Of a stretch of 53,632 bases of DNA, positions 25,537-48,800 are shown in pieces. Where the stretch lies: assembly GCA_016930255.1 (NCBI GenBank), contig JAFGHB010000006.1, positions 1 through 53,632 on the forward strand, given 5' to 3'. Within the stretch, counting starts at the first letter, position 1; every line of letters begins with the position of its first letter. The translations under genes and the position numbers were made by a program. The DNA comes from Methanomicrobia archaeon (GTDB lineage Archaea > Halobacteriota > Syntropharchaeia > Alkanophagales > Methanospirareceae). The notes beneath the pieces were generated by a model. The model saw nothing but the letters and a program-made list of their open reading frames with translations, was not told the origin of the DNA and did no database searches.

Positions 25537-28500
25537 TACCTCGAATGTCTCCGTTGGCGGCCACGATATCATCACCTGGCAGCTCCACAATATGACTCCG
25601 AACCAGCAGCACATCATCGAGTTGAATGCGACCCTGATCGGCTGCGAAGATCGCACTAATAGCGTCATCGCAAGATGGGGCTGCGGCGGCGAGGAGTGCC
25701 AGAACGTGAGCGATACCTCGCAGGTCGCAATCCCCCGGACCTGGATCGCAGTGACGCGCCACGAAGCGGATCTGGTGGACGAATGCGGCGCGAATGCCAG
25801 TTTCTTCATCGAGGTGAAGAACCGTGGCAAGACCTATGCCTACAACATCAATGTCTCCGAGCTGCTGCCTGACGGGCTCCAATACGTGGCAGGTTCGGCA
25901 AACGTTACGGGCGCGATACCGTCGTCCGAGAACCTGAGCGGGAACCCCTTGGCCTGGTACTTTGACCAGTGGGCGCCCGGCACGGCCGTTACCATCACCT
26001 TTAACGCGACGGTCACCGGGCCCTGCGATTTCACCGGAGGTCCAGCGACGACCGGGGTGAATTACACAAAACTGTGCGGCGATTTCGGGATAGAGCGCAA
26101 GAACGATTTAACGGTCGATTTGGCGAATCCACAGTTGAGCATCACCAAGACGTCGGCCTTCACCATAGCGGATAACAGCAGCTACGTCAACTGGACGATT
26201 ACGATAACGAGCGACGGCGATTACGAGGCGAAGAATATCACGCTTCAGGATGTGCTGCCGAGTAATACCGTCTATGATGCCGCAAACACAAGTCCTGCTG
26301 CTACTAGTGGAACGGGAACGGTAGGTGACCCGCTCGTCTGGAACCTTGGAAATATGAATATTGGAAACGTCACCACGATTAACGTATCTGCTCGGGTAAC
26401 GGGCTGCACTAATGATACCGAGAACAATGCAACGATCTTCTGGGGCTGCTGTCCCCCCAAGGAGAGCGTATCCGCGCTCGCAGAGTTGCGCACGCAGCCG
26501 GTGTTGGTGCTCGATAAAGTCTCTGAACTCGATACCTGTAGTGGCAATATGACACTCACGATTGAGAACGAGGGCTCCACCGCTACAATTTTGAATATAA
26601 CGGAATACTTACCGAACGGGTATGATTACGTTCCCACCTCAGCGACCATTTCGAGCGATAATGCAAGTCACACGATTACCAACCCCGAACCGGTCGTTAT
26701 AGATCTCAATTACATCCTGTGGAACTCTACAAACGTTGAGGTCATCTATCCTAATGAACTCCTTACCATTAATTTGAGTGTAAATAACACGAAATGCAGC
26801 CAATCCTACTGCGAGAAGGTCTATCACACCAACGAGACGCTCGTGGTGAACTATACAGATTCGTGCTTGAATCCGCTTACTATAAACCAAACGTGGGACG
26901 TTGACCCGGTAATCATGGAGATACGCGTTCACAAGGAGCCGCCAACACAAGTCGTTGGCTTCGCGAGCTGGACGATCAATGTCAGCAGCTACAACGCAAC
27001 GGCGTATAACGTCACGGTTGAGGACGTGCTCGGCACGGCATTCCATTCCATCGCCACCTATTACCTTAACGGGAGTCCAGACAACTCAGCGACGAACATC
27101 ACTTTACCCAGCGGAAATAAAGAGATCCTATGGACGGGACAGAACATACCCCAAGGCACAGATACCTGGGTGCGACGGATCACGGCGCAGGTTAACGCCA
27201 CCGGTACCGTGGAGAACAACGTAACGGTCACCGGCTACTGCACGTGTGGCTGTATATACAGCATGCACGGCGATTTGGTGTACGCTTCGCGGCTCAACTT
27301 CACCAAGGTGCCGAACGGGACGCTTACGATCGGCGAATATGCGAACTTCACGCTCACCGCAGAGTACTGGGGCGCCGAGAATTACAGCGCCGTGACGATC
27401 ACTGACGTGCTCCCCGAGAACCTTGTCTATATCGATTCGAATATCACCGACGATGGCGGCATCTCCTACGATGCCAATCTCTCGATCAGCACCGCTACGA
27501 ACATCACGTACCTCACGTGGGACGTGGGCAACTTCACGGGCCCCAAGATCTTCACCATCAACCTCACGACCATCGTTGCCAATATTGAGGGCAATCAGAA
27601 CGGTAGCACCGTCTGGAACAATGCGTACTCGACCCATAAGAACGATTACAATGAGACCTTTTCTGCCTATGATAGCGCGTGGGTCGGCGTCATTGAACCG
27701 GATCTCATTATCGAAAAATCGACCAACAAGACGATTGTGGTAGCGGGCGATGTGGTCGAGTACACCGTTAAAGTCTATCATACCGCGCAAAGCACGCACG
27801 ATGCCTATGATGTATGGATCAACGATACCGTTCCTGCTAAGCTGGATATCCTTTCCAATACCTCCTCTCCCACTGCAGATCTCTCGATCCAAGCCGGGCA
27901 TAACTTCAGTTGGTTCTACGGGTACGTACCGCTCTCGTATAATGCATCCAATCCGGTCAATATAACCTATGCAGTACGTGTCAATGCGAGTGTGATCATC
28001 GGTGAGGAGCTGAGGAACAACGCAACGGTGACGTGGACGAGTGTCAATGAGACAACGGGCAACGAGAGTTTCGAGCGGTTCGGGAACTACACCGACCTGG
28101 ACGATTACAACGATACCGCAGAGGCTCCGCTAACCGCGAACACCACGCGATCGATGGAGAAACTGCCGCAGGAGACGCGGTATCGCACGATCGGAGAGGG
28201 TGTGAACTTCACCATCAAGGTCTATCTACCGCTGACGAATGTTTTAGCGGTCTGGGTGAACGATACACTTTCCACCGGCATGATTTATGATAACACATCA
28301 GTCGCACTGACGGCGAACAACGACACGTTCCAGGAAATCATCAGCGAACCGAATAACGGCACGCAGCCAACGACGGTGAGCTGGTATCTCGGCACCGTGA
28401 ACAACACCGACGGAACCGACATAACCTTAGACTTCACCGCGATTATCGCGGACGTTCCGAGCAACCAGAACGGGACGATCCTCAACAACAGCGCCATGGT

Positions 28501-31500
28501 CTCCTGGAAGTTCGCGAACGGGACCTCCGGGATGCTCAGTAACACCTCGGGCGACATAATCGTTCTCGAACCGGACCTCCAGGTTTCGAAGCGGTTCAAC
28601 GTCTCCGTGATCGAAGCGGGTGACCTTATCAACTTCACCGTTGTCGTGAATCACACCGCTGCAAGTGCCTGGGATGCCTTCGATCTCTGGATCAATGATA
28701 CCGCACCTGATAAGCTCGCGGATATCAGTTGTTCTTTCGTCCCAGCGCCAAATCAAACTGCGGACCATGCATGGTATTTCACGCGGCTTAATCTCTCGGA
28801 TACTATTACAGTTACCTGCACAGCACGGATTAACGAGACGATTGAACTGAATGAGACGCTGGAAAACATTGTTAACCTCACCTGGACGAGCACGCCCGAA
28901 ACGAATCCCTATGAAGACAACGAACGCTTTGGCAACCGGACTGACCTGGACGATTATAACCGAACGGATTCAGATACCGTCACGGCCAGCGATTTCATCT
29001 TGCTCGCGAAGACCGTGAACAAGCAGAATGCAACGATCGGCGAATATCTCACCTACACCATTACCGTCGGCTTACCAAAAGTGACGGTGAACAACGTCTC
29101 GCTAAACGATACGCTGCCCTCTGATTTGGCCTATGACCGGTTCATCTCACTGGATGCGGGCGGCAACAACGAGACGCTCGTGGAGACCGTTGCCGGGCAA
29201 AACATCTCCTGGTATCTCGGCGATGTGAACAACTCGGACGGGAGTAACATAACAATTGTGTTTAGAGCGGTGGTGCGCGACATCATGGCGAACCAGAACG
29301 GTCAGTACGTGGAGAACAACAGCGTCCAGTTCACAGGCTACGATGCTAACGACACGGAATACCGTGAAGAAGCCGCGTCTGATACCGTGCTCATTGTCGA
29401 GCCTGACCTGGCGATCGAGAAATCCGTGAATGCATCAGTCGTCGAAGCGGGTGATGTCGTTACCTACACGCTCAACGTCTCACATACCGTGCAAAGCGCT
29501 GCTGATGCGTTTGACGTGTGGGTGAACGATACGCTGCCTGAGCACCTTAATTTCCTCGCAGAGACCTCTACGGGTACGTTCAACCAAGCTGGAAAGAACT
29601 TGAGCTGGGTCTATTCGTACATCCCCTTATCGAATAATACCTTGAATCCCACTATTACGTACACTGCACGGGTGACGGGCGAAGTTATTGCTAATGAAAG
29701 CCTCCGAAACCTCGTTAACCTTACCTGGACGAGCGTAGACGAGACGATTGGGAACGAAAGCCACGAGCGATTCGGCAACGAGACACCACTTGATGACTAT
29801 AATGCAGTAAATGCAACTACTTTAACCGGTGCGACCAACTGGAGCATCAATAAAACGGTAGATAAACCAAAAGCAACCATTGGCGAATATATCAATTATA
29901 CGGTGCAGGTTGACTTGCCGAGAGTTCACGTCTTGAATTTGACGGTGGCGGATGTTCTTCAAAGGGGACTGATATATCATGATAATAGTTCTCCCGTGGA
30001 CCCGGACAACTTCACGGTCTCGTCGCCAAACGACGGCTCGCAAGATGTCACGGTTACCTTCGAATATAACGACTTCAACAACTCTCTCGGTGACGATTTA
30101 ACCATTACTATAACCGCTATCGTAGCAGACGTATATGGCAATCAAAATGGAACAGAACTAAACAATACGGTGAATGTTTCGTGGATTGATGCTGGAGACA
30201 GTGAATATCGCAACGGAACAAATGTTTCGAGTACCATAATCGAACCGGATTTAGAATTAAACAAAACGGCGAACGTAACGCATGTTGAAGCGGGCGATCT
30301 CATCGCCTTTAATATCACGGTCACGCACACACCGAGTAGCACGGCCGACGCGTACGACGTCTGGATAAATGACACGATCCCCGTTCGAACGGATTTGGTT
30401 GACACTGCTTCAAATCCCCCGGAAGATAACTTCAGCCAGGTCGGTAGAGATCTGAGTTGGTACTACGCTCATGTGCCCCCTGCTCAGATACTCAATATCA
30501 CCTATACCGTTCGAGTAAACGAGAGTGTCAGTCCGCTCGATATCCTCACAAACAATGCCTCGCTCACATGGACGAGTGTCACTGCGACAATGGGGAATGA
30601 AAGCCAAGAACGATTCGGAGGACGGACCGTCTTGGATGAGTATAATGACTCCGACAGCCAGAACGTTACCGTTTGGGAAGCAGAACTATACAAGGAACCT
30701 GACTTTAATAGGAGCCATTGGATTAACGATTCCGTCTGGTATCGGATCTCTCTCGTACTGCCCTATGCGACGGTTTTGAATACAACGGTTAATGATACGT
30801 TACCGCAAGGCTTAATCTTTGATAACGCGAGCGTTGTTGTTGACCCGAACCACACGTATAACCTCTCATTCTCGGAACCGAACAACGGAACGCAACCGGT
30901 CAACATCACCTTCGATTTCGGCAATCTTTTAGGTGGAACGATTGTCAACGTCACCTTCACGGCGATCGTTGCTGATATCCCGGCCAATCAAAACGGTACG
31001 ATACTGACGCAGAATTTCGCGCAGCTCTTTTGGAATGACAATGGAGGCGGGCTCCACAATGATTCGGACACCTCAGGAAACATAACCGTTATCAGGTTAC
31101 CACGGATCAACCTGACGGACGGCGTGATCAAGATTGTCGAACCAGCGTATGTCATTCCCGGTGCCTTTGTTAACTATACCATATACATCATGAATGACGG
31201 ATTCGCACCCGCGTACAATGTAACACTCTTCGATATGCTGCCAAACTATGTGAGCTATATTCCCAATACGACGATGGTGCATGGGGTGCCGGGGCCAAAT
31301 CCCGATACTATCACGTTGTATCCGAATGGAACGACAAAGATCGCGTGGGCGAATGTGATTGACGTACTTAACGCAAGCGAGACTAAATGGGTGCGTTATG
31401 CGTGTTCAGTATCGTCAGCTACGCCGTTTGAGGAGGTATTGATAAATAACGCGACCGTAGAAAAGTTTGAGGATGAAGAGGGCAAGGAATATCCGGGCGC

Positions 31501-31645
31501 AAGCGATTCGGCAATTCTTACGGTTATCACTCCCGTCCCGGTGTTAAATGCCGTGGGGTTGATTATCCTGACCGGGTCCTTGATGGTTATCGCGATTGGT
31601 CGGATGCGAAAAGGGAGAAAGGAAGGAAGAAGGGAATTTGAGTGA
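25454..31645 (+). CDS. Giant DUF11-repeat surface protein, main part with membrane anchor
   Basis: A frame of 2,063 codons that holds most of the surface protein; its first ATG overlaps the previous piece and is not a real start. Repeated extracellular beta-sandwich domains fill nearly all of it. Four long modules begin with EPDL (near 27695, 28567, 29399, 30241) and contain ERFGN-x-T-x-LDDYN. The C-terminus PVPVLNAVGLIILTGSLMVI followed by GRMRKGRK is a tripartite anchor: short motif, membrane helix, basic tail, as in archaeal sorting signals. N-x-S/T sites are very dense, so heavy glycosylation is likely. Role in cell-surface contact or sheath is inferred. Confidence 0.8.
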   Translation: MSRSSIHTLDPDMAYLSSSIDGSADPGNTSNVSVGGHDIITWQLHNMTPNQQHIIELNATLIGCEDRTNSVIARWGCGGEECQNVSDTSQVAIPRTWIAVTRHEADLVDECGANASFFIEVKNRGKTYAYNINVSELLPDGLQYVAGSANVTGAIPSSENLSGNPLAWYFDQWAPGTAVTITFNATVTGPCDFTGGPATTGVNYTKLCGDFGIERKNDLTVDLANPQLSITKTSAFTIADNSSYVNWTITITSDGDYEAKNITLQDVLPSNTVYDAANTSPAATSGTGTVGDPLVWNLGNMNIGNVTTINVSARVTGCTNDTENNATIFWGCCPPKESVSALAELRTQPVLVLDKVSELDTCSGNMTLTIENEGSTATILNITEYLPNGYDYVPTSATISSDNASHTITNPEPVVIDLNYILWNSTNVEVIYPNELLTINLSVNNTKCSQSYCEKVYHTNETLVVNYTDSCLNPLTINQTWDVDPVIMEIRVHKEPPTQVVGFASWTINVSSYNATAYNVTVEDVLGTAFHSIATYYLNGSPDNSATNITLPSGNKEILWTGQNIPQGTDTWVRRITAQVNATGTVENNVTVTGYCTCGCIYSMHGDLVYASRLNFTKVPNGTLTIGEYANFTLTAEYWGAENYSAVTITDVLPENLVYIDSNITDDGGISYDANLSISTATNITYLTWDVGNFTGPKIFTINLTTIVANIEGNQNGSTVWNNAYSTHKNDYNETFSAYDSAWVGVIEPDLIIEKSTNKTIVVAGDVVEYTVKVYHTAQSTHDAYDVWINDTVPAKLDILSNTSSPTADLSIQAGHNFSWFYGYVPLSYNASNPVNITYAVRVNASVIIGEELRNNATVTWTSVNETTGNESFERFGNYTDLDDYNDTAEAPLTANTTRSMEKLPQETRYRTIGEGVNFTIKVYLPLTNVLAVWVNDTLSTGMIYDNTSVALTANNDTFQEIISEPNNGTQPTTVSWYLGTVNNTDGTDITLDFTAIIADVPSNQNGTILNNSAMVSWKFANGTSGMLSNTSGDIIVLEPDLQVSKRFNVSVIEAGDLINFTVVVNHTAASAWDAFDLWINDTAPDKLADISCSFVPAPNQTADHAWYFTRLNLSDTITVTCTARINETIELNETLENIVNLTWTSTPETNPYEDNERFGNRTDLDDYNRTDSDTVTASDFILLAKTVNKQNATIGEYLTYTITVGLPKVTVNNVSLNDTLPSDLAYDRFISLDAGGNNETLVETVAGQNISWYLGDVNNSDGSNITIVFRAVVRDIMANQNGQYVENNSVQFTGYDANDTEYREEAASDTVLIVEPDLAIEKSVNASVVEAGDVVTYTLNVSHTVQSAADAFDVWVNDTLPEHLNFLAETSTGTFNQAGKNLSWVYSYIPLSNNTLNPTITYTARVTGEVIANESLRNLVNLTWTSVDETIGNESHERFGNETPLDDYNAVNATTLTGATNWSINKTVDKPKATIGEYINYTVQVDLPRVHVLNLTVADVLQRGLIYHDNSSPVDPDNFTVSSPNDGSQDVTVTFEYNDFNNSLGDDLTITITAIVADVYGNQNGTELNNTVNVSWIDAGDSEYRNGTNVSSTIIEPDLELNKTANVTHVEAGDLIAFNITVTHTPSSTADAYDVWINDTIPVRTDLVDTASNPPEDNFSQVGRDLSWYYAHVPPAQILNITYTVRVNESVSPLDILTNNASLTWTSVTATMGNESQERFGGRTVLDEYNDSDSQNVTVWEAELYKEPDFNRSHWINDSVWYRISLVLPYATVLNTTVNDTLPQGLIFDNASVVVDPNHTYNLSFSEPNNGTQPVNITFDFGNLLGGTIVNVTFTAIVADIPANQNGTILTQNFAQLFWNDNGGGLHNDSDTSGNITVIRLPRINLTDGVIKIVEPAYVIPGAFVNYTIYIMNDGFAPAYNVTLFDMLPNYVSYIPNTTMVHGVPGPNPDTITLYPNGTTKIAWANVIDVLNASETKWVRYACSVSSATPFEEVLINNATVEKFEDEEGKEYPGASDSAILTVITPVPVLNAVGLIILTGSLMVIAIGRMRKGRKEGRREFE
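27695..31090 (+). repeat. Four tandem ~280-residue modules in the DUF11 protein
   Basis: The start motif EPDL is spaced 872, 832 and 842 bases apart. Each module has DA-(Y/F)-D-(V/L)-W-(I/V)-NDT early and ERFG(N/G)-x-T-x-LD(D/E)YN later, then a second subdomain opening with TIGE-Y or similar and A-x-QNGT. The modules differ enough at base level to be old duplications, not recent copies. Confidence 0.75.
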
Positions 31646-34309: not shown

Positions 34310-35041
34310 ATGAAACTGCTTGCGCAGCTAATCGAAGAACGGAACTTCCATAACGCATGGGCTAAAGCAATCCGCTCGATCCTCCGTGAGGGACCGGATC
34401 TGGTCATCGGCGGTGGTGACGAGCGGAAACCGATAAAAGATGCGTGCATGCTGATCAGTATGACGGGAAACGCGATCAAGCAAATAGAAGCACACGAATT
34501 ACACCCCCAGTATCCCTTCAGGCGAGTCGAGGAATACTGTAATGAGTTCACGAGACCATTCTTAGAGGAGTACCGGTCGAAGCCCGTAAAGGAGCGGTTC
34601 ACGTATCTTTATTTCGAACGGTTGGCCCATTATGAAGCCCTTTCCGGTTTAAACAGTTCGGATCAGATAGCGTTATTGAAAGACGCGTTAGCTGACCAGA
34701 TCAGGCAGCATATAACCTCAAATAGAGCCCAGGCAATTACCTGGTATGTGCCCGTTGATATAGGGCGGAGTTCACCGCCCTGCTTACAGCGGATACAAAT
34801 TCGCTATATCCCTGTGGATATGGTGGATATTCATCTTACCTGGCGATCACGGGATCTGTTCACCGCGTGGCAATCGAATATCGTCTGCATTATCGAGATG
34901 CTTAACCGTGAAGTAATCAAGCCGAATAACTGCCAGATCGTACGAATAATCGATTACAGCGATTCATTGCACATTTATGCACGCGATATCGAAGATGCAA
35001 AGAAGGTCAACTTAGTACCGGTAAGCCCACAGGAACTGTAG
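34310..35041 (+). CDS. Thymidylate synthase, archaeal ThyA type (putative)
   Basis: A 243-residue protein whose second half matches archaeal thymidylate synthase, which methylates dUMP to dTMP. Evidence: PPCLQRIQIRYI with the expected catalytic cysteine C158, LTWRSRDLFTAWQSN near 178 (the R-S-x-D ... A ... N pattern), and IIDYSDSLHIYARD near 214 (compare S-x-S-x-H-I-Y-x-x-D). The N-terminal half is divergent, with REGPDLVIGGGDERKPIKDA near 25. Length fits the short archaeal form, which probably uses a pterin of the methanogen type as carbon donor. The start ATG has only a weak ribosome site. Confidence 0.75.
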   Translation: MKLLAQLIEERNFHNAWAKAIRSILREGPDLVIGGGDERKPIKDACMLISMTGNAIKQIEAHELHPQYPFRRVEEYCNEFTRPFLEEYRSKPVKERFTYLYFERLAHYEALSGLNSSDQIALLKDALADQIRQHITSNRAQAITWYVPVDIGRSSPPCLQRIQIRYIPVDMVDIHLTWRSRDLFTAWQSNIVCIIEMLNREVIKPNNCQIVRIIDYSDSLHIYARDIEDAKKVNLVPVSPQEL

Positions 35042-35287: not shown

Positions 35288-36019
35288 ATGGCGCAATTAG
35301 CAAAGACGAATGGTACGGTAGCGGGAGCGAGCGAGAAGCGTAAAAAAGGGAACGTAGTGGCATCGTGGACGGGCGGCAAAGACGGGTGTTTCGCATGCTA
35401 TAACGCACTGTTAGACGGTTTCAACGTCACGCATCTCTTGAATTTCAAAGATCTGAAGAAACACGCACCCCATAACCTGAACCACGACGTGCTCGCCGCG
35501 CAGTCAGAGGCGATGGGCGTTCCGATTATTCAGCGGGAATTTGTATCCTACGAAGCGGAATTTAAAAAGGTGATACGCACGTTAAACGAGAACGGTGCGG
35601 AGATAAAAGGCGCGATATTCGGGCATATCGGCATGCACGAGCACCTGGTGCAGCGAATCTGCAGCGATCTGGATATCGAGTCGATCATGCCGCTCTGGAA
35701 CCGCGATTCCGAGCAACTCGTAACGGACTTCATCGCCGCAGGATTCGAGGCGATTGTGATCACGACGAAAGCTGATTTAATGGGTAAAGAGTGGCTCGGG
35801 CGGACGATAAACGAGGAATTTGTAGCACAGTTACGTACGTTCAACAGCGCGATTGATCCCTGTGGCGAGTTTGGCGAGTTCCATTCGCTTGTCATCGACG
35901 GCCCGCTGTTCAAGAATCGGATAGAGCTGGGCGAGAGCGAACCGATACTGGAGGATGGCTATTGGCGCCTAGATATTTTTGACTATACGCTTGGCGAGAA
36001 GAAAAGAGATACGCAGTGA
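35288..36019 (+). CDS. PP-loop ATP pyrophosphatase, Dph6/MJ0570-like
   Basis: A 243-residue enzyme of the adenine-nucleotide alpha-hydrolase family. The PP-loop is VASWTGGKDGCFACYNAL at residues 25-42, followed by HNLNHDVLAAQSEAMGVP near 62, IFGHIGMHEH near 110 and the family ending EFGEFHSLVIDGPLF near 205. Close relatives include diphthine-ammonia ligase, which finishes diphthamide on elongation factor 2, so that is the likely role. Residues 1-20 are a polar extension. TTCTCAAATA at 35229-35238 upstream is also found in the spacer before 36767. It is convergent with the RHH gene. Confidence 0.8.
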   Translation: MAQLAKTNGTVAGASEKRKKGNVVASWTGGKDGCFACYNALLDGFNVTHLLNFKDLKKHAPHNLNHDVLAAQSEAMGVPIIQREFVSYEAEFKKVIRTLNENGAEIKGAIFGHIGMHEHLVQRICSDLDIESIMPLWNRDSEQLVTDFIAAGFEAIVITTKADLMGKEWLGRTINEEFVAQLRTFNSAIDPCGEFGEFHSLVIDGPLFKNRIELGESEPILEDGYWRLDIFDYTLGEKKRDTQ

Positions 36020-36029
36020 AGTCCGCTTC

Positions 36030-36575
36030 TCAATCGTGAACAACCTTCACCCGCAGTTTCGCAAAGTCTTCTTTTATACTCACTTGGAACCCCATCCGCT
36101 CGAAGGTCTCTTCAAGAAGCGTTTTTACGAAGCCCTTGAGCACGTCAGAACCCATAATCAACGTGTAGTCGTTCTCTGACGCCTGGTTCACGGTAAAGTA
36201 ATTGCACGCTTCCAGTCGCTTGAGCACATCCTCTACGCTGTATCCTTGTTGCCCGAACTGCTCGGCATGCGCTTCGTATATCGGCTTGTTCAATTCCCAG
36301 AACTGCTCTTTCGCGGGATGCGACTCAATAAACTTCAGGAAGAGGATCCAGTGATCGATATCGACGATGATATGCTCCCCCACGCGAAGCATCTCGGTAT
36401 GCGTGTACATCTTGTCATCTTCAACGGACTCGATCAACACACGATATTTGCTGTAAAATCGCAACGCTTCGCGGATGAGTTCGCTCTGTGAAATCTTCAA
36501 TTCATCCTGCAGTGTCTTAAACCGCGAAAACGTGTCTTCATCCAGAGCCACCGTGATTCTCTCGAGTGTCCCCAT
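36030..36575 (-). CDS. Ribbon-helix-helix regulator with uncharacterised C-terminal domain (copy 1)
   Basis: A 181-residue DNA-binding protein. Residues 4-45 form a CopG/MetJ-type ribbon-helix-helix: beta strand RITVALDEDTF, then RFKTLQDELKISQSELIREAL. The rest (about 55-181) is a domain I do not recognise, with GEHIIVDIDHWILFLKFIES, FWELNKPIYEAHAEQF, and LKRLEACNYFTVNQ. Over most of its length it is clearly homologous to the protein at 52940. It is divergent from the FrhB-like operon across 191 bases that hold three TTCTCAAA copies, so it is a likely regulator of that operon and of itself. The ligand is unknown. Confidence 0.8.
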   Translation of the reverse strand: MGTLERITVALDEDTFSRFKTLQDELKISQSELIREALRFYSKYRVLIESVEDDKMYTHTEMLRVGEHIIVDIDHWILFLKFIESHPAKEQFWELNKPIYEAHAEQFGQQGYSVEDVLKRLEACNYFTVNQASENDYTLIMGSDVLKGFVKTLLEETFERMGFQVSIKEDFAKLRVKVVHD

Positions 36576-36766: not shown

Positions 36767-37885
36767 ATGGGGGATATACGGAACTTTCCGGTATGCTGCT
36801 ATTGCGGTGCGTGTGCCGCGTTTATACCGGATTTTGAGAAGTATCAGGATGATGAAGTAGTGTTTGATAAGGGCTGTGGCGGAACGGCCGCAAAGGGCTT
36901 CTGTTTCAGTTTCTGTCCACGCGGATTCGCAGTGTGTCGGTTATGTGAGGAGGAGTGCCCGCGGTTGGAATACGGCGTCTGTGATTTCAGTCCCTGCGCC
37001 TCTTCGCCTGAAAAGCGGATTCTGGGTTACTATAAAGAGATACTGAGCGCACGAGCAACGGATAAGGGCATTAGAAGCGGTGGACAGGATGGTGGATTCA
37101 CGACGGCGTTACTGTACCACGCGTTAGAGGCGGGCTTCATCGATGCCGCAGTCATTGCGACGCGGACAGAAGAGTGGAAAGCCGAGCCTTTTGTCGCTAC
37201 CACAGCCGAGGAAGTGTTGCTCGGTCGTGGCTCAAAATACACCGCGTGCCCTATGGTCAAAGGCGTATGGGATGCAATTGACAGTGGTTACGAAACTATC
37301 GCCATGGTCGGCACGGGCTGTAATGTAGAGGCCGTGAGACGTTTGCAAGCGTTGCGAGACCCCGCTTTAGAGTTAGATCGGGTAAAACTACTGGTTGGCG
37401 TCTTTAGCTTCGAGGCGTTCTGGCATCGTAAGCTGGTCTCTTTTCTAGCAGAACGCAAAGGGATTGACATCAGGGATGTGGAGCGCTTTTACGTTTCGAA
37501 TGGCAACATGTGCGTGATGACCAAGGACGGAGAGGTCCCTATCCCGCTTAAAGAGATAGAGCCCTGCAGGCGGGATACCTGCCTGATCTGCGAAGATGCT
37601 ACCTCACAACTCGCGGATATATCTGTGGGCCACGTTGGCTCGCCTGACGGATGGACGACGATAATTATTCGAACAGAGGTAGGGGAGAAGCTCGTCAAGG
37701 CGGCTGAAGCGGCAGAGGTAATAGAAACGCAGAAGCTCGATGCGGACGCACTGGAAGAGCTCGAACGATTTGCGTTCAATAAGAAGCGGTGGAATTACGG
37801 CGCGATATTAGACCAAATGAAGATCTGTTCCGGGTGTTTCACGGTTCCTTATCCTTTTGCCATGCAATTAAGAGGAGGTATTTGA
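36767..37885 (+). CDS. FrhB-like F420 oxidoreductase subunit
   Basis: A 372-residue flavin/iron-sulfur protein of the coenzyme F420 hydrogenase/dehydrogenase beta family, which passes electrons between F420H2 and a partner. The hallmark is SGGQDGGFTTALLYHALE near residue 107. GTGCNVEAVRRLQ near 183 and CLICEDATSQLADISVG near 275 also match the family. Cysteines are numerous: CCYCGAC at 10-16, FCFSFCPRGF, CRLCEEEC and CDFSPC in the first 85 residues, and CSGCF at the end, enough for two or three clusters. AGGAGAAG precedes the ATG. The next gene begins one base after the stop, so a complex with it is expected. Confidence 0.85.
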   Translation: MGDIRNFPVCCYCGACAAFIPDFEKYQDDEVVFDKGCGGTAAKGFCFSFCPRGFAVCRLCEEECPRLEYGVCDFSPCASSPEKRILGYYKEILSARATDKGIRSGGQDGGFTTALLYHALEAGFIDAAVIATRTEEWKAEPFVATTAEEVLLGRGSKYTACPMVKGVWDAIDSGYETIAMVGTGCNVEAVRRLQALRDPALELDRVKLLVGVFSFEAFWHRKLVSFLAERKGIDIRDVERFYVSNGNMCVMTKDGEVPIPLKEIEPCRRDTCLICEDATSQLADISVGHVGSPDGWTTIIIRTEVGEKLVKAAEAAEVIETQKLDADALEELERFAFNKKRWNYGAILDQMKICSGCFTVPYPFAMQLRGGI

Positions 37886-37886
37886 A

Positions 37887-39485
37887 ATGCCAGATATCTA
37901 TGCAAATGCGAGATCTACCACAGGAACATCTGTGAGAAGACGAGATGTGAACACACAGAGCGGCATGTGTCCGATCTGTGTGAAGGAGTGTACAGTGCTC
38001 TGCGAGATAGGGAAGTCAGCGTTTAGAGGTCGAGAAGTATTGTATCCTGAGCCCGAGCAGTTTGGCTGGAGTACAGCAGCGTCGAACAAGGATTATCGAC
38101 TCGATTGGTCAGATTTTAATATTCTCTCGCGCCTACGAGGTGCGGAAGGGATAGAACCGGACCCGGATGTTGCCTTGTTCCATAATGTGGATATAGAATC
38201 GAAGATAGGTGGAATCCCGTTAAAAATGCCCCTGGCAAGCGGTGCCTTCGGCTCTACGGATGTGGGCATGAACAACTGGGATGCGCTTGCCATCGGTGCT
38301 GCGCTCTCGGGGATAATAATCATCATCGGAGAGAACGTCTGCGGCGTTGACAAGGATTCAATGTTTACAAACGGAAAAGTGACGAAATCGCCTGAGCTGG
38401 AACGGCGAGTTCGAGTCTTCCAGGAATACTGGGATGGCAAATACGGTGACATAGCGGTGCAGACGAATGTTGAAGACCAGCGATTCGGCGTCGATGAATA
38501 TGCGATCTCGAAGCTTGATGTAAACATCATAGAGCGGAAGTGGGGCCAGGGCGCGAAGGCGATCGGCGGTGAAATACGCGTATCTTCGCTGGATCGTGCA
38601 GTAGAATTGAAGAAGCGAGGGTATTATGTGCTACCGGATCCTGAGAATGAAACGGTAAAAGAAGCGTTTAAAGATGGGCTCTTCAAGACCTTCGAGCGCC
38701 ACAGCCGCGTGGGATTCCCGGAAGAAAATGGATTTATAGAGGATGTCGAATGGCTCCGGGATATCGGCACAAAGTATGTATCGATAAAGACAGGTGCGTA
38801 TCGGCCCGTGGACGTAGCGTGGACAATGAAAGTAGCGTCCGAGGCGAAGGTGGATTACATAACGTTTGACGGTGCCGGCGGCGGGACGGGTATGAGCCCC
38901 GTGCCGATGATGAACGAAATGAGCACGCCCACGGTCTATTTAGAAGCCCAGATATTGCAGTGCGCTCAGATCCTGGAGCGTGCAGGGAAATACGTTCCTG
39001 ATATGAGTATGGCCGGAGGGATCATTAACGAAACGCAGATGTTCAAGGCGATAGCACTGAGCAACTTTGATGGCTCGAAGCCCTACGTGAAATCAATCAC
39101 CATGGCACGATCGCCGTTAACAGCAGCGATGAAAGCCTGTTATTTCTCCGATCTCGCAGCCAGGGGTAGATTACCGCGCGATTTTGCCAATAAATATGGA
39201 AACAGTCCAGATAAATTCTTTATCGCCGCTGATGAGCTCAAAACGAAATTCGGTGAGAATTTGGGAACGAAGATACCGTGGTCTGCTGTTGGTGTCTATA
39301 CCTATCTCAGCGAACGGCTCGGTTTAGGATTGAAGCAGTTACTTGCAGGAACTCGAAAATTCAAGCTGGATTTGATAGACCGGACAGATCTTGCATCGCT
39401 CAGTGAGCTGGCGTCCGAAGTTACCGGTATACCCATGATGCATGAAGTAGAGCGGGAGTTGTTGGAAGGTATTTTGCTTGGTTGA
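37887..39485 (+). CDS. FMN-binding glutamate synthase-like protein (GltB domain)
   Basis: A 532-residue protein with the FMN (beta/alpha)8 barrel of glutamate synthase. An N-terminal cysteine set, C28-x2-C31-x3-C35-x3-C39 (CPICVKECTVLC), probably holds a cluster. The barrel shows PLKMPLASGAFGSTDVGM near 110, GENVCGVDKD near 150 and the FMN-phosphate region FDGAGGGTGMSPVPM near 330. The usual glutaminase domain and the C-terminal GXGXG helix are absent. GGAGG precedes the ATG, and translation is coupled to the FrhB-like gene. I infer F420H2-driven glutamate formation from 2-oxoglutarate and ammonia from a separate source; another aminated product is possible. Confidence 0.82.
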   Translation: MPDIYANARSTTGTSVRRRDVNTQSGMCPICVKECTVLCEIGKSAFRGREVLYPEPEQFGWSTAASNKDYRLDWSDFNILSRLRGAEGIEPDPDVALFHNVDIESKIGGIPLKMPLASGAFGSTDVGMNNWDALAIGAALSGIIIIIGENVCGVDKDSMFTNGKVTKSPELERRVRVFQEYWDGKYGDIAVQTNVEDQRFGVDEYAISKLDVNIIERKWGQGAKAIGGEIRVSSLDRAVELKKRGYYVLPDPENETVKEAFKDGLFKTFERHSRVGFPEENGFIEDVEWLRDIGTKYVSIKTGAYRPVDVAWTMKVASEAKVDYITFDGAGGGTGMSPVPMMNEMSTPTVYLEAQILQCAQILERAGKYVPDMSMAGGIINETQMFKAIALSNFDGSKPYVKSITMARSPLTAAMKACYFSDLAARGRLPRDFANKYGNSPDKFFIAADELKTKFGENLGTKIPWSAVGVYTYLSERLGLGLKQLLAGTRKFKLDLIDRTDLASLSELASEVTGIPMMHEVERELLEGILLG

Positions 39486-39529
39486 GGTATTAGAAAGGGG
39501 AAAGAGAAATGGAGGTGAAAAACAAAAAA

Positions 39530-40150
39530 ATGTTCTATCCAGAAAAATTCGTAGAGGAGCAGGTTAAGACCATACGCGAGCAGATTCGGTATGGAAAAGT
39601 AGTCGTAGCTGTTTCAGGTGGCGTGGAATCAAGTGTGTGTGCGGTTCTTTCGCATCGTGCGATTGGAGATCAATTGGTAGCAGTTCTTATCGATGATGGC
39701 CTGATGCGAAAAGGCGAGAGGGAGAACATCATGAACTTCTTCACGGACTGTGGTGTGAATATACGGCAGGTCGATGCCACTCGTGAATTTTTTGATGCGT
39801 GTAAGGGGGTTAACGAACCAGAAGAGCAGAGGAGAGTGTATCGAAATGCATTCTACGCGGTCCTTGGAAGGATCGTACAAGAAGAGAAAGCGCATTATTT
39901 AATTAAAGGAACAACAGCAGCAGATGTTGTTAAGACCGAAGATGGAATCGAGGTTCAGGACAACATTTTCGAGGAGGTTGGTCTTATCGATTCACGAAAT
40001 AATGGCCTGACGGTTGTTGAGCCTCTGAGGGAGCTGTACAAACACGAGGTAAGTAGAGTTGCTAAGAGTTTAGGAGTGCCATCGGAACTCACCGATCGAG
40101 CGACCTTTCCTGTGGTCCTCGACCTGCTACGAGAAAACTTAGTGAAGTAA
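39530..40150 (+). CDS. Stand-alone PP-loop ATPase related to GMP synthase ATPase domain
   Basis: A protein of about 206 residues that matches the ATP-pyrophosphatase domain of GuaA but not the dimerisation domain. It has VVVAVSGGVESSVCAVLSHR near 24-43, LIDDGLMRKGE near 63 and LIKGTTAADVVKTED near 125, then VVEPLRELYKHEVSRVAKSLG, and stops soon after. The PP-loop has Glu where SGG-x-DSS is normal. A complete guaA exists at 51325, so this is a paralogue with another job, perhaps amidation of a metabolite made with the GltB-like partner. ATG 39530 follows GGAGGTGA by 11 bases; ATG 39509 is the alternative. Confidence 0.75.
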   Translation: MFYPEKFVEEQVKTIREQIRYGKVVVAVSGGVESSVCAVLSHRAIGDQLVAVLIDDGLMRKGERENIMNFFTDCGVNIRQVDATREFFDACKGVNEPEEQRRVYRNAFYAVLGRIVQEEKAHYLIKGTTAADVVKTEDGIEVQDNIFEEVGLIDSRNNGLTVVEPLRELYKHEVSRVAKSLGVPSELTDRATFPVVLDLLRENLVK

Positions 40151-42828: not shown

Positions 42829-45800
42829 TCAATACAACGCTATCGCAGGGATCCTGTTGTTATATCGCTTCCCGTTAGCGTCAACGAACTCCGTGCAGGT
42901 TATCCACCCTTTCGGCGTTAATAGTTCAGATTTGTGGTGAATCCGCGGATAAGAGCCGGTGCGGATAGTGTAGTTGTAGGTTTCATTTGCCAGCAGTGTA
43001 AACGGTTCGTTGAACGTGATGTTGTGCCAATCGCCCCGGTAGCCGTTCCACGTTGCCGTGACATTCCAACCGGAATTGTTCCAGAGCTTTACGTATTCCG
43101 TATGTCCTCCTGTTCCCGAAGAGGGATAGGTGTACAACGTGCTCACGTTGATAGTTTGTAAAGGCGTTATTGATCCATTGTGCGTGCCGGGAATACTTGG
43201 ATACGTGCCTTCTCCGGTATTGAAGCCTGGCAGTTCTACCGGCTGTAACACGACAAGAAGAGGATCACCGACATAGAGCCTCACAGTGACTGTTTTGTTA
43301 GCCACATCACGGGAGAACGCTGGCTCACCAGGCGGTTTCACGGTAGGAAGCGCAGTAACGTCAGCAACCTCTGGTAAGAACCCCATGCCCGCTTTGAAGA
43401 CCTTGCAGGTTCCGATATCCATGGTACCGACGTTGATCGTTATATCGGTGTATGCATCATCCGCAGAATTCGCTGGCGTACTGTCCAGCACGTTTACCGT
43501 AATGGCTATTACGTTGCTTAAATCCGTCCCCGGTGGTAGTTCAGGCTCCAAATCGCCGGGACTGGCAGGCTCGATATCAACCGTTACGCCGACATCCGCA
43601 TACGTATACGGCAATACCAAAGGTTGGTAATCGCCGCTGTCCCAAATTCTTCCAGAGCAGGTGTACGGAACAAGGGTATCACCGAGTAGATCATCGTCCT
43701 GATCTTCACCAGTGTAATCGCTCCAGTAATTACCGCCAAGGTACGGACCACCCAGGATGTTTGTCCCTGCTCTTGGTGTGATGTTCCAACGGTTCGTGCT
43801 GAAGTCTCTCGCGTTCCTCGTATTGTCAAAGTAGTTGTTGTAGATGGTGTTGTCGCTGGCAGAAGAGAGATAAATACCATAATAGAAATTATTCGAGATC
43901 CTGTTGCTCATGATCATACTACTCTCGACATAATCGAGATAGATGCCATACCCCGTGGTATACCCTCTGTTCGAGTGCACCGTGTTACCTGCGATGCTAT
44001 TGTTATGGGATAATTTATTCCAGGAACCGCTTATCCAAATGCCATAGCCGTTCGAAGCCACGGTGTTGGCGGTAACCTGATTATTGCTGGACTCCCCCAG
44101 GTATATGCCGCCGTGTTCGTTGTTCAAGAATGTATTGTTAGTTAACCTTATATTCGTTGAGTTAATAACTACAATACCTAAGAAGTTATTTGTTATTATT
44201 ATATCCTTGGCAGTAATATTATTGCATGACAGAAGCGCGACATACCCGGCATTTTTATCTATTATGATGTCAGATTTTCCCATTAAATGATACATAGGTC
44301 TGCTATTAATGGTGTTTGAGGTATCTATATCTTGATAAAAGTCAGAATCAGGAGAACCCGCTATACCGAAATTGTAGGTATTTTCTTGGAGTTTATTATC
44401 ATGCAGCTTATTGTTGCTGGATGAATCTAGATAGGCCCCATAGCCCTTATTTGAGGAGATGGTGTTGTTCGTAAGGTTGTTACTCCAAGACTCTTCAAGG
44501 TTGATGCCCGTACCAGTATTGTTTGCCAACAGGTTTCCCGTAATATTCAGCCCGGAAGATGATCGTAAGAGAATACCGTGGTTCTTATTGTCCGTTATGC
44601 GGTTATCGTAAATCGTCGCATTTGAGAATGATGCTGCTTCAATACCGCAGGAGTATCCCGTCGCCGTATTGTTCTGTATCGTGTTGTTGGCTACGGTTGC
44701 ATTTGCTCCGGACTTCAGATAAATGCCGTGCCCGTAAGTGCCGCCAGCTCCGTTATCGCTGATAACATTATCAGAAATGGTTAAATTGAACGTCTGTTCT
44801 GAAACGAGGCCGTGCTGATTATTCGACGTGATCGTGTTATCAGTGATAATACTATTGTTGGATGACCGGAGCAAAACCCCGTCACCCGTGCCATCGTCAC
44901 CATAATCGCCGCCGCCAGTACCGCCAGTTATACCCGAAATGGTACTGTTACATACGGTGGTGTTTGGTGACAAATGCAGATACACCCCGATGCCCTTGCC
45001 GCCATTCCCATCAGTGCTGAGCCAATCGTCTAAACTGCCACCAACACCACCGGAAACGGTTGAAATCGTGTTGATTGAGAGCAAGTTATTGACCCCTTTA
45101 TACACGTGGATCCCAGTGCCAAGCCCGCCCGTTCTCGTTAAATTAAAAAGCGATTCGTTGCCCGGCGCACCGGTTATGTGGGCTATGATCGTCTCATTTA
45201 CACGGTTGTTATCTGATGCCACATAGATCCCCGTAGATCCATTTATCACCGTAAACCCGCTGATAACGCAGTCATCGGCTATGACCCGGATGACCTCGCC
45301 GCTTCCGTTGCCCTCGATGATCGTCGTGTGTTTGTTCTCGCCAATGAGCGCTAAGGGTTTATTCACGACCACGTGTTCTCTGTACGTCCCGTTATGTACA
45401 TAAATAGTATCGCCAAGCTGCGCGGCATTCACCGCCTCCTGGATAGACGAGTAGGAGCTGGTATTGTGCACGGGAGCATCGCCGGTAAAAGCAAGCGTCG
45501 AGAATAGACCCGTAACATCGAGTGTCCCACCGGAAGCTCCGCCATAGGTCTCCACAAGCGAGATCGTACTACCCAGTGAGGTTACGTAATCACGAACCCA
45601 TTGCGGTACCTTGCCATCAAAGGCAAAGACGATCTCAACGGTAGAACCATATGCAGCCTGGCATGCAGTGATTATGTTACTTATTTCCTGCTTAAGCTCG
45701 TTCTGTTTCTGCGTGGATGCATAAGCGCTCCAATCATTGATATCAAACGGCACAACAACCTTGTAGCTCGAATCAGGATTCTGTATGATTATAATGATGG

Positions 45801-48800
45801 CTGCTATGCCGCCAATACTCGTTTTTATCTCGACTATCGTCTGTCCTTCATCTTTGTACTGCGACGCGATCTCCGCTGCGAATACCGCTTCTGACTCGCC
45901 ATTAGCAATTTGATCGGTTAACTCGTCCGAGCCCGGAATCCCTTCGATATTATTGAGATCGCCCAACAACTCGGCGGCATCGTCGCCCGTATTGACTCCA
46001 AGATCGTCGTAGCTGCCCGGATAAACGTTATGATTCTTGCCGAGGCCTTTTACCGTCGTTACATAGTCCTCTGCTGCCTGGGTGGGCAGTCCTTTCAACT
46101 CTGCGAGGAGTCCTTCAATACCCCACGAATAAACGTTAAAAATATTGTTAATCATCTTGCCCGTAAGGCCGCAGAAGGGGATTACTTCCATAACGCCCCG
46201 TATTAAGTTCATTCCATTATTTCCGGTAGCGACTTGATAGAGATAATAGGGCGTGTCTCTGATGAGCGTCAGAAATGGAACGAAATTTGATAAGAATGCT
46301 CCTAAGAGCCGTGATTGTTCGCTAACAGAATCGTCATAGGCGTCACTCCACGCCCCGTAGGCAAACCCTTTCCAAAAGGCGTCCCAATCTATGTCCCAGA
46401 AATCAGCCCAGGCGGAATCTGTTGGCATTCCCCCCGAATGGCCCGTGATGAGAAAGCCCGATGCGCCGGTCTCGGGATCGGTCACCATATACGCAATGCC
46501 GGTCCACCCGTTTATCTGCATCTCTCGTTTCGGAATGATCACAATTTTGTCCTGGTTTACCGCGTCCTCAATCCAGTCCCAGACGTACGAAGGGATCATA
46601 TACAGTTCTGAGCGCCGCGCAGCCAGGTTATACTGGGAGATTAAGTAAACGGGTATTGCTTGCCGGTTAGCCTCCTGCAGGACTTTGACGGTGGAGACGG
46701 AATCGATGCCATAGAGATGTTCAAATATACTGTGCTCTGCTCCTGAGGCCGCCATGCCGGTACCAAGCATGAAAGCGCGTGTGTCATTAACCGCACCCAC
46801 GGCGCCTAACGTATGCCTGCTGATGTCCATCACCATCCCGCCCTCATCCACCGAGCACAGGCCGAAGACGCAGGCTACTTGCAAGTCCAGCGCCGTTCTG
46901 CCATAGGCCGGCGACGAGCGGTAGCTTCTCACATCGAAGGCCGCAGCATAAATCTCCTCAAAATAATCACTTTCAAAGAACCAGCACATCCCGATAAGGT
47001 GCAACTGTCGCAGGACATTGTCGGCAAACGTTTCGTTCGCCGCGAAGTCACATTCGTTTATCTCGCTCTCGACCTGTGGAAGGGATACTGTACCCACATT
47101 GAAGAGCAGGGCATATAAGGCGCCGACGGTAAACGTATCGTTCACTGTTCGGGGCGTGGCATTCAGTGGCTGATAGAATTCGAGGGTAAGATCTGCAAAG
47201 CTGCCCAACGCTCGCGCCGAGCCATTGGCCACGGGCTCGCCATCGATGAGCAACACCGGCTGCATATCCGCCCAATCGGCCGCATTTTTCCAGCCCCACT
47301 GCTTCAGTATCGTACGATCATATTCGGTAGCGGGATTGAACTTGAGCATGACCTTCTTACTCGCAATCTCGGGTGCGTAGAGTGTATAATTGACGAAACC
47401 TTTGAGTTCTATCCGGTGATAGTAATCCTGCGGTATCTCTGCAGAGACATTCAAAATGGAAACGACTTCGTAAGGAAGTACGGTTGGCAACGAATCGGAA
47501 TACTCTTCTGTGAGATTCCAATAGCCAAAGAGCTGCCGCAACGTGAGATTCCGTAACTCAGGGTCAGCCATAATAGACGCAATCGTGTCATTTACCTGCG
47601 CTTCAAAACTCGCAGTAATAAAGGTCTCGTTCACCCCCGTTACCCACCCGTGCGGCTCATCGTACGTTGCTGTTGCTAACATCTCGGTCAGAATAGCGGA
47701 TACTTCAGTCGCATTGTACGTTAAATTCACGCCGGGCACGTATTCGTAGGTTTTATAGCTCGGATCCACGGGCACCCACGTCTCCGAGCCATTCTGCGTT
47801 ACGTACGCTTCAACCCACATGTGCTCGAGCCGTATCCCGAACTTATCTTCTGTAAGATTGTAGACGGTGGCCCCTGGAATACCAGTCTCATAGATGAGTC
47901 TCGAAACGTAGCGAGTGTCCTTAACACGCAGCCAGTTGGCGGCGTCTTCTTCAGAAACGTCAATCGTGCCGTACACATATCGGGCAGGTATTCCGGATTC
48001 GCGCAGTAACGCAACCAGGAGATTCGCCTGGTCGAACGAATTCCCTGCATGTTGCTGTAACGTCCAATCAGAGCCAGCCATCAACCCAAAATAAGGCTCA
48101 TAATCGGTAGTATTCCGCACGTAGTAGTAGATTTGGACCGGGTCATAATTCAGGTCTGCAGCCAGTTCTTTAATCGCGCTCGAGGCATTACCCGCCAGAT
48201 AATCAGATGGGTCTTGAGACGCGCCCAGGGCAGCATCAAGAGTCCCAACTACTTGTTCTTTATCTCGCAAGAGCCGGGGCTCCGGAGCCGTCGAATAGGA
48301 GGAGTCCTGAATCAAACCACTTAACGAGCGCTCTTCCGGGGAGCATGCAACTCCTTCAAGCACTGTCTTCAGATCTTCCAGTTCTGTTGTGCTGAGCGCG
48401 TTCGTTCTTGTCTCCGGGGGTTGGTGTGGTTCGATTGCCTGGAGTAAAACGGACGAACTCGACTCGAAATCCTCAACGCGTTTAAGGTGTTTAGTTAGAA
48501 TATCTTCAGAGAGCTCGCCTTCAGACACCAGTTCTTCAAATAATCTCGTGGTAGTGTCTAATGCGTGCCTCACATTGGCATGATTTTTCCGTACAGCGTC
48601 TGTAGCCTTTGTATATTTTACGATTAAATCCTCGGATACCGCGCCATCTTCCAAATCCTTTTCCAATTCTAAAGTGATACGGTAGAGAGTCGCTATAGAT
48701 GCATCTAATTCCTTTACTGCCTCATACGGTGAAAGTACCTGTAACTCTGCCAGTTCACCTCCGTTACTGTTTTCACTGGTATATACAAGTGAATTCGACA

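What the first reader, a model, noticed from the sequence alone, without database searches (positions are those of the whole stretch)
36767..40150. FrhB-like, GltB-like and PP-loop genes form a tight operon: a candidate F420-linked glutamate (or amide) synthase
The FrhB-like subunit stops one base before the GltB-like start, and a PP-loop ATPase follows with 44 bases between. The GltB-like protein has the FMN barrel but no glutaminase domain and no GXGXG domain, and its cluster cysteines are at the N-terminus. An F420H2-driven glutamate synthase has been suggested for methane-oxidising archaea; the added PP-loop ATPase hints at ATP-dependent amidation as a further step. Where ammonia comes from is not visible.
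Basis: partly seen in the sequence, partly recalled or inferred. Interest (0 to 1): 0.72.

Follow-up and report, generated by a model that had tools for sequence, protein, structure and literature searches.

The report
F420-linked candidate glutamate synthase pair
Two neighbouring genes in a methane-oxidising archaeon very probably encode an enzyme that uses the electron carrier F420 to make glutamate; its catalytic half belongs to a barely described archaeal protein family that, in many other archaea, looks like the only way to make glutamate.

Summary
The genes are there as described. The FrhB-like and GltB-like genes are a conserved pair: 27 of 28 related Syntrophoarchaeia loci have it, plus one other family of the class. 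The PP-loop gene is not part of it: it directly follows the pair in only three relatives, and here it is a truncated, fast-evolving copy of the GMP-synthase ATPase subunit. The GltB-like protein is a distant member of the glutamate synthase FMN-barrel family. It keeps key motifs but has lost the 3Fe-4S cysteines, glutaminase and GXGXG domain, and has an invariant N-terminal four-cysteine motif. It occurs across many archaea, usually without FrhB; one ANME-1 paralogue is joined to NuoE/NuoF subunits instead. Neighbours are often glutamine synthetase, proline genes or canonical glutamate synthase. In one family (probably Archaeoglobaceae) it tends to replace canonical glutamate synthase, and in 23 genomes no other glutamate-forming enzyme was found. 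Best reading: an F420H2-dependent glutamate synthase, probably using free ammonium. Chadwick et al. 2022 already proposed F420-dependent glutamate synthases around an ANME-1 FrhB; the distinct catalytic family, its spread and its replacement role are added here. No activity has been shown.

The parts
36767..37885 (+). FrhB-like F420 oxidoreductase subunit (372 aa): N-terminal ferredoxin-like part plus F420-reductase domain; inferred electron entry from F420H2
   Evidence: Pfam FrhB_FdhB_N/C; closest solved structure 8riu_B, the F420-reductase subunit of an ethanotroph CO dehydrogenase, E 2.8e-67 over residues 9-348; conserved directly upstream of the GltB-like gene in Syntrophoarchaeia
37887..39485 (+). 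GltB-like FMN-barrel protein (532 aa): inferred catalytic subunit reducing 2-oxoglutarate plus ammonia to glutamate
   Evidence: HMM-HMM alignment to canonical archaeal GltB2, probability 97.8, E 7.3e-13; AlphaFold model pLDDT 80.5 matching the FMN barrels of lactate oxidase, IDI-2 and glutamate synthase
37968..38003 (+). C28-x2-C31-x3-C35-x3-C39 motif of the GltB-like protein: inferred [4Fe-4S] site that takes electrons from FrhB, replacing the lost 3Fe-4S site of canonical GltB
   Evidence: all four cysteines invariant in 40 diverse members and in alignment A1; the cluster itself is inferred
38331..38333 (+). E149 of the GEN motif, aligned with the Glu of the canonical GEGG motif
38532..38576 (+). 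E216 to R230/231 region, ERKWGQGAKAIGGE: K218, Q221 and K224 align with the canonical ELKxxQGAK motif
36030..36575 (-). divergent ribbon-helix-helix protein (181 aa), possible regulator; relatives lie near the GltB-like gene in 17 loci
   Evidence: Pfam RHH_1 E 4.6e-07; recurrence
39509..40150 (+). PP-loop gene: truncated paralogue of the GMP-synthase ATPase subunit; judged NOT part of the enzyme
   Evidence: lacks the dimerisation domain kept in 319-324 aa relatives; dN/dS 0.24-0.33; directly follows the pair in only three ANME-1 relatives

Best explanation
The FrhB-like and GltB-like proteins form a two-subunit F420H2-dependent glutamate synthase. F420H2 gives a hydride to FAD in the FrhB-like subunit; single electrons pass through its iron-sulfur clusters and the N-terminal four-cysteine cluster of the GltB-like subunit to FMN in the barrel; reduced FMN then reduces the imine formed from 2-oxoglutarate and ammonia to glutamate. 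No glutaminase is encoded with it, so ammonia most likely comes from free ammonium (or an unlinked glutaminase). The PP-loop gene is a bystander. Shown here: the conserved pair, homology, conserved motifs, N-metabolism neighbours, and an apparent replacement of canonical glutamate synthase elsewhere. Inferred: complex formation, cofactors, substrate, ammonia source, direction.
For: (1) 27 of 28 related Syntrophoarchaeia loci with upstream sequence have FrhB directly upstream of GltB-like (two only in part: cut by a contig end or a broken frame); in the exception (L144) the GltB-like gene itself is broken. A second family of the same class also has the pair. The linked FrhBs of ANME-1 and allies form one clade (96/99), and pairwise FrhB and GltB-like distances correlate at r 0.80 (shared ancestry not removed). 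(2) The GltB-like family aligns with canonical GltB2 and keeps K218/Q221/K224, E149, K301 and GGTG. (3) 34 of 97 loci have a glutamine/glutamate-linked gene within 4 kb: GlnA 13, ProAB 13, canonical GOGAT 6, GuaA 6 (three of these are the PP-loop gene or its relatives), HisHF 5, AmtB 1 (about 3% expected by a rough estimate). In five ANME-1 loci GlnA lies upstream of FrhB on the same strand, and L040 also has AmtB. (4) In GTDB family f7 (probably Archaeoglobaceae; 47 genomes) canonical GltB is in 33, GltB-like in 14, both in 4, neither in 4; Fisher p 1.3e-4, and exclusivity recurs within genera g20, g45 and g57. (5) 23 of the 41 genomes tested have GltB-like but no canonical GltB, no GltB glutaminase PF00310 above cut-off and no glutamate dehydrogenase PF02812; one search found no full-length relative of the ANME-1 glutaminase subunit in them. 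(6) Electron-input swap: a paralogue clade in ANME-1 sits with NuoE, NuoF and a Fer2/Fer4 subunit. (7) Precedent: related FrhB subunits are built into CO dehydrogenase and formylmethanofuran dehydrogenase (PMC11493965).
Against: No biochemical data. The window's own genome also encodes a canonical GOGAT locus (L113) and a glutamate dehydrogenase, so the pair is not its only route. A profile search against PDB sequences found no glutamate synthase, and the best structural hits by E-value are lactate oxidases, so homology alone does not fix the substrate. Most relatives outside Syntrophoarchaeia stand alone, without FrhB. Gene linkage to FrhB need not mean coupling: F420 reduction coupled to CO oxidation was not detected in ANME-1 extracts (PMC11493965), although an FrhB lies beside CODH genes in this genome. 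The exclusivity test is not corrected for relatedness. Aminotransferases and other amination routes were not searched.
Confidence: 0.6

Rival explanations
1. Same enzyme, but glutamine-dependent: a glutaminase encoded elsewhere docks onto the barrel and passes ammonia, as in canonical glutamate synthase.
For: Canonical enzymes work this way (PMC8097209); the window genome has a glutaminase plus GXGXG protein in its GOGAT locus; the pair lies near glutamine synthetase in several relatives.
Against: Genomes that have only the GltB-like type lack the GltB-type glutaminase; no glutaminase gene is linked to the pair other than HisH or GuaA, which have their own jobs.
Confidence: 0.25
2. The GltB-like protein is an FMN enzyme for a different substrate of nitrogen metabolism (another oxo acid, imine or hydroxy acid), using F420 as redox partner.
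For: Large divergence from GltB; Foldseek ranks lactate oxidase and IDI-2 barrels first by E-value; most genomes of the phylum that have it also carry canonical GltB (105 of 137); it has its own invariant residues such as R271-H272-S273-R274.
Against: Shared KxxQGAK and GGTG motifs with glutamate synthase; apparent replacement of canonical GltB in Archaeoglobaceae-like genomes; no other glutamate-forming enzyme found in 23 genomes.
Confidence: 0.2
3. The pair runs backwards as an F420-reducing glutamate dehydrogenase that breaks down glutamate.
For: F420 is reduced in ANME catabolism; FrhB paralogues in ANME-1 sit with oxidative enzymes such as PFOR and CODH (PMC9012536).
Against: The F420 couple is much lower in potential than 2-oxoglutarate/glutamate (textbook values, own knowledge), so the reductive direction is favoured; neighbours include GlnA and AmtB, which point to assimilation.
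Confidence: 0.06
4. All three genes form one amide- or amino-acid-making enzyme, the PP-loop ATPase activating a carboxylate.
For: Same strand, short spacing; the same order in three ANME-1 relatives.
Against: Absent after the pair in most Syntrophoarchaeia loci; truncated here and in L033; L033 has lost the PP-loop aspartate; dN/dS about five times that of GltB-like; full-length relatives keep the FPGPGLATR and KPPATIE motifs shared with GMP synthase.
Confidence: 0.03

Closest known systems
Putative F420-dependent glutamate synthases FGltS(I) and FGltS(II) of methanogens (Susanti and Mukhopadhyay 2012, PMC3448663) and the FrhB10 clusters of ANME-1 (Chadwick et al. 2022, PMC9012536)
   Same: FrhB-type F420 subunit encoded next to a glutamate-synthase-type FMN protein; FrhB10 is described as ANME-specific, with various glutamate synthase subunits, and none of the other FrhB paralogues of this genome lies beside glutamate synthase genes, so the window pair is very probably FrhB10 (inference; accession tables not readable here)
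   Different: Here the catalytic subunit belongs to a divergent family without the 3Fe-4S ligands, glutaminase or GXGXG domain; in 2022 it was only called 'various subunits of glutamate synthase'
Canonical glutamate synthase large subunit (GltB; archaeal GltB2; PDB 1EA0, 1OFD, 7MFM)
   Same: FMN barrel; GEGG/GEN Glu, KxxQGAK, GGTG and (S/A)GG motifs align
   Different: No 3Fe-4S cysteines, no glutaminase, no GXGXG domain; four-cysteine N-terminus; only a 107-residue Pfam Glu_synthase match
F420-reductase subunit of the CO dehydrogenase complex of Ca. Ethanoperedens (8RIU; PMC11493965)
   Same: Same domain plan (ferredoxin part, F420-reductase domain), closest solved relative of the window FrhB-like protein
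   Different: Feeds electrons from CO to F420; here the partner and probably the direction differ
GMP synthase ATP-pyrophosphatase subunit (GuaAb)
   Same: The PP-loop protein matches the ATPase half
   Different: C-terminal dimerisation domain missing in the window

Membership tests
F420-dependent glutamate synthase (as proposed in PMC3448663 and PMC9012536) | FrhB-type F420 subunit encoded with the synthase subunit | tested here: met
   Pair conserved in 27 of 28 related Syntrophoarchaeia loci and in a further family of the class
F420-dependent glutamate synthase (as proposed in PMC3448663 and PMC9012536) | Catalytic subunit of the glutamate synthase FMN-barrel family with its motifs | tested here: met
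   HMM-HMM probability 97.8, E 7.3e-13, motifs aligned; fold; the relation is distant
F420-dependent glutamate synthase (as proposed in PMC3448663 and PMC9012536) | F420H2- and 2-oxoglutarate-dependent glutamate formation | not testable with these tools
   needs purified protein
Canonical glutamate synthase GltB | 3Fe-4S cluster cysteines after the barrel | tested here: not met
   aligned region AAMKACYFSDLAARG lacks the canonical cysteine pattern
Canonical glutamate synthase GltB | Glutaminase domain or linked glutaminase subunit | tested here: not met
   no domain, none in the operon; GltB-type glutaminase also absent from genomes that have only the GltB-like type
Canonical glutamate synthase GltB | GXGXG domain | tested here: not met
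FrhB/FpoF-type F420 oxidoreductase subunit | FrhB_FdhB_N and _C domains plus N-terminal ferredoxin part | tested here: met
   F420 binding itself not tested
GMP synthase ATPase subunit (PP-loop gene) | PP-loop ATPase domain | tested here: met
   TIGR00884 positions 1-189, E 9.6e-54, below its curated cut-off
GMP synthase ATPase subunit (PP-loop gene) | C-terminal dimerisation/XMP-binding domain | tested here: not met

The most novel reading that the evidence does not exclude
The GltB-like family is a separate class of glutamate synthase that needs no glutaminase (an ammonium-dependent flavoenzyme), accepts electrons through a four-cysteine N-terminal cluster from interchangeable donors (FrhB/F420H2, NuoEF-type NAD(P)H subunits, or a soluble carrier where it stands alone), and is the only glutamate-forming enzyme in many archaea of several phyla, including gut-type Methanomassiliicoccales and Hadesarchaea.
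Probability: 0.35. Interest if true: 0.8.

Novelty: new variant of a known kind. Interest (0 to 1): 0.6.

Why it matters
Many archaea that live on alkanes, methyl compounds or in hydrothermal settings appear to lack every textbook enzyme for making glutamate. If this family fills that gap, it closes a hole in archaeal nitrogen metabolism, links ammonium assimilation in methane-oxidising archaea directly to F420, and gives a glutamate synthase stripped of glutaminase and 3Fe-4S cluster, useful for asking how the large canonical enzyme was assembled. It can be tested in cultured stand-alone hosts and by expressing the pair.

Tried and rejected
A link to methyl-coenzyme M reductase was tested: GltB-like and McrA co-occur more than expected in 296 genomes (103 both, Fisher p 1.4e-9), but well-assembled MCR-free genomes also carry it (e.g. 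G096, G055, G174), so it is not an MCR-dedicated gene. PDB profile search was uninformative: only designed TIM barrels. No open paper found names the GltB-like family, and sources for the 2-oxoglutarate-binding residues were not held, so motif roles are stated by alignment only. PF00310 alone misses the divergent glutaminase of the window genome, so a second query was added. A single gain of the FrhB pairing was not settled: the GltB-like partner in family f3 (L148) branches apart from the ANME-1 clade, while its FrhB placement is unresolved. The pair could not be modelled as a complex with the tools given. The PP-loop/HisH/HisF order recalled sugar-amidination clusters, but HisH and HisF here pass the curated histidine-biosynthesis cut-offs of TIGR01855 and TIGR00735, so that reading was dropped.
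Full report
OBSERVATION. The three ORFs are present on the + strand at 36767-37885, 37887-39485 and 39509-40150. One base separates the first two, and a strong ribosome-binding sequence precedes the second start. The 44-base gap quoted for the third gene assumes the second in-frame ATG (39530), which is also the start shared by relatives. Pfam and NCBIfam identify an FrhB-type F420 subunit, a protein with only a partial Glu_synthase match, and a GMP-synthase-type ATPase half. The window lies in an ANME-1 (Methanophagales) genome, judged by its nearest relatives.

CONSERVATION OF THE PAIR. Relatives of the GltB-like protein were collected from GTDB contigs (80 loci) and from 51 genomes of the same family (36 with a match). 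In Syntrophoarchaeia (ANME-1, Alkanophaga, Methanoxibalbensis) the FrhB-like gene lies directly upstream in 27 of 28 related loci with upstream sequence, counting two where only part of FrhB is present (L039, L046); the exception, L144, has a broken GltB-like gene. Another family of the class (L148) also has the pair, with FrhB at 48% identity. Outside these groups (Archaeoglobi, Hadesarchaea, Bathyarchaeota, Brockarchaeota, Methanomethyliaceae, Methanomassiliicoccales, other Halobacteriota) the GltB-like gene stands without FrhB. GltB-like is under strong purifying selection (dN/dS 0.03-0.07) and FrhB-like under moderate (0.09-0.20).

THE PP-LOOP GENE. It directly follows the pair in three relatives (L004/L033, L008, L017/L049) and lies at a distance in L144; it does not follow the pair in the others. 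Relatives in L008, L049 and L144 are 319-324 aa and carry the dimerisation domain with the FPGPGLATR and KPPATIE motifs shared with GMP synthase; the copies in the window and L033 end before it (213 and 212 aa), and L033 has SGGVGS instead of SGGVDS. dN/dS is 0.24-0.33. The genome has a full-length GMP synthase (window 51325-52917) and a further GuaAb-type gene (L134). The PP-loop gene is therefore a shortened paralogue under relaxed constraint, not an amidation subunit.

WHAT THE GltB-LIKE PROTEIN IS. Forty diverse members share 106 nearly invariant positions, including C28, C31, C35, C39, E149, K218-WGQGAK224, R271-H272-S273-R274, K301 and G332-GTG. HMM-HMM comparison with canonical archaeal GltB2 gives probability 97.8 and E 7.3e-13, placing KWGQGAKA-IGGE on KYAQGAKPGLGGH, GEN on GEGG, and GGTGMSP on GGTGAAP. 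The canonical cysteines after the barrel are absent; the canonical enzyme carries a 3Fe-4S cluster in its electron path (PMC8097209), and that these cysteines are its ligands is my own knowledge. The AlphaFold model (pLDDT 80.5; N-terminus low) matches FMN barrels; glutamate synthases score the highest query-normalised TM among the listed hits (0.47-0.49), though lactate oxidases have lower E-values. The family is thus a distant glutamate synthase relative with a different electron-entry site (the last point inferred).

SURROUNDINGS. Within 4 kb, 34 of 97 loci have a gene of glutamine/glutamate metabolism: glutamine synthetase (13 loci: ANME-1, several Archaeoglobi, a Hadesarchaeon and another Halobacteriota family), ProA/ProB (13, Methanomassiliicoccales), the three-gene canonical GOGAT (6, Methanomassiliicoccales), GMP synthase or its ATPase relative (6), HisH/HisF (5), ammonium transporter (1). 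These counts are not independent, because related genomes share gene order, but the signal recurs in separate lineages and with two different GlnA families. A paralogue clade in ANME-1 and one other family (100/100 support) lies with NuoE, NuoF and a Fer2/Fer4 subunit where the flanks reach that far; that Fer2/Fer4 subunit is 49% identical to the front part of an FrhB fusion in the window genome. This looks like exchange of electron-input parts around a common acceptor.

REPLACEMENT OF CANONICAL GLUTAMATE SYNTHASE. In 296 genomes of the phylum, 137 have GltB-like, 246 canonical GltB, 105 both, 18 neither. In family f7 (probably Archaeoglobaceae; 47 genomes) the two are largely exclusive: 29 canonical only, 10 GltB-like only, 4 both, 4 neither, Fisher p 1.3e-4, recurring inside three genera. 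Twenty-three of the 41 genomes tested carry GltB-like but no canonical GltB, no GltB-type glutaminase above cut-off and no glutamate dehydrogenase: G096, G182, G134, G249, G245, G063, G197, G213, G055, G053, G073, G110, G031, G020, G021, G324, G325, G326, G328, G330, G331, G335, G341. A second search with the divergent glutaminase of the window genome found only weak partial hits in G134 and G249. Several of these genomes are 97-99% complete (G096, G134, G063, G055, G053). Such organisms must make glutamate by this protein, by a route not searched, or import it. The window's own genome is not one of them: it keeps a canonical GOGAT locus and a glutamate dehydrogenase.

MECHANISM. F420H2 to FAD to Fe-S in the FrhB-like subunit, to the four-cysteine site, to FMN, to the imine of 2-oxoglutarate. 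The FrhB-like protein resembles in domain plan the subunit solved in the ethanotroph CO dehydrogenase, where an N-terminal ferredoxin domain docks onto the partner enzyme. Ammonia most likely comes from ammonium, because glutaminase is missing both here and in the genomes that have only this type. All steps after gene order, homology and distribution are inferred.

KNOWN OR NEW. F420-dependent glutamate synthases were proposed for methanogens in 2012 (PMC3448663), and the ANME-1 FrhB10 clusters as a third putative group in 2022 (PMC9012536). By elimination the window pair is very probably FrhB10. The electron-donor idea is therefore not new. New here are the identification of the catalytic subunit as a separate family, its wide and mostly FrhB-free distribution, its apparent replacement of canonical glutamate synthase, the NuoEF-linked variant, and the exclusion of the PP-loop gene.

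Noticed in passing
window 36030-36575 (-): Ribbon-helix-helix protein whose relatives lie near the GltB-like gene in 17 loci of ANME-1 and Hadesarchaea, sometimes on both sides; a candidate regulator.
   Followed up: partly
L130:642-6077 (G000 contig C46): Glutamate dehydrogenase gene divergent from a NuoE-NuoF-[Fer2/Fer4-FrhB fusion] cluster, which could pass electrons between F420 and NAD(P) beside a glutamate dehydrogenase.
   Followed up: partly
L114:1448-3070 (-): Rubredoxin domain fused to a canonical Glu_synthase FMN domain (541 aa).
   Followed up: no
L113:195-10494: Canonical GOGAT locus of the same genome: GlnA, FAD oxidase, a second divergent Glu_synthase protein with Fer4, GltB2, a glutaminase-GXGXG fusion, and PurF.
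   Followed up: partly
G002 contig C30, G006/G342 contig C19: Short remnants of the glutaminase-GXGXG gene (67-74% identical fragments) in ANME-1 genomes that carry the FrhB/GltB-like pair but no canonical GltB2 match, suggesting decay of canonical GOGAT there.
   Followed up: no
G000 and several other family f1 genomes: No McrA (PF02249) match although the assembly is 95% complete; could be an assembly gap or real absence.
   Followed up: no
window 34310-35041 and 35288-36019 (+): Thymidylate synthase-like and Dph6-like ATPase proteins, both well below the NCBIfam cut-offs of the named families.
   Followed up: no
window 42829-48912 (-) and 25454-31645 (+): Very large ORFs of 2027 and 2063 aa; the first has a signal-like start and repeat-rich stretches.
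   Followed up: no
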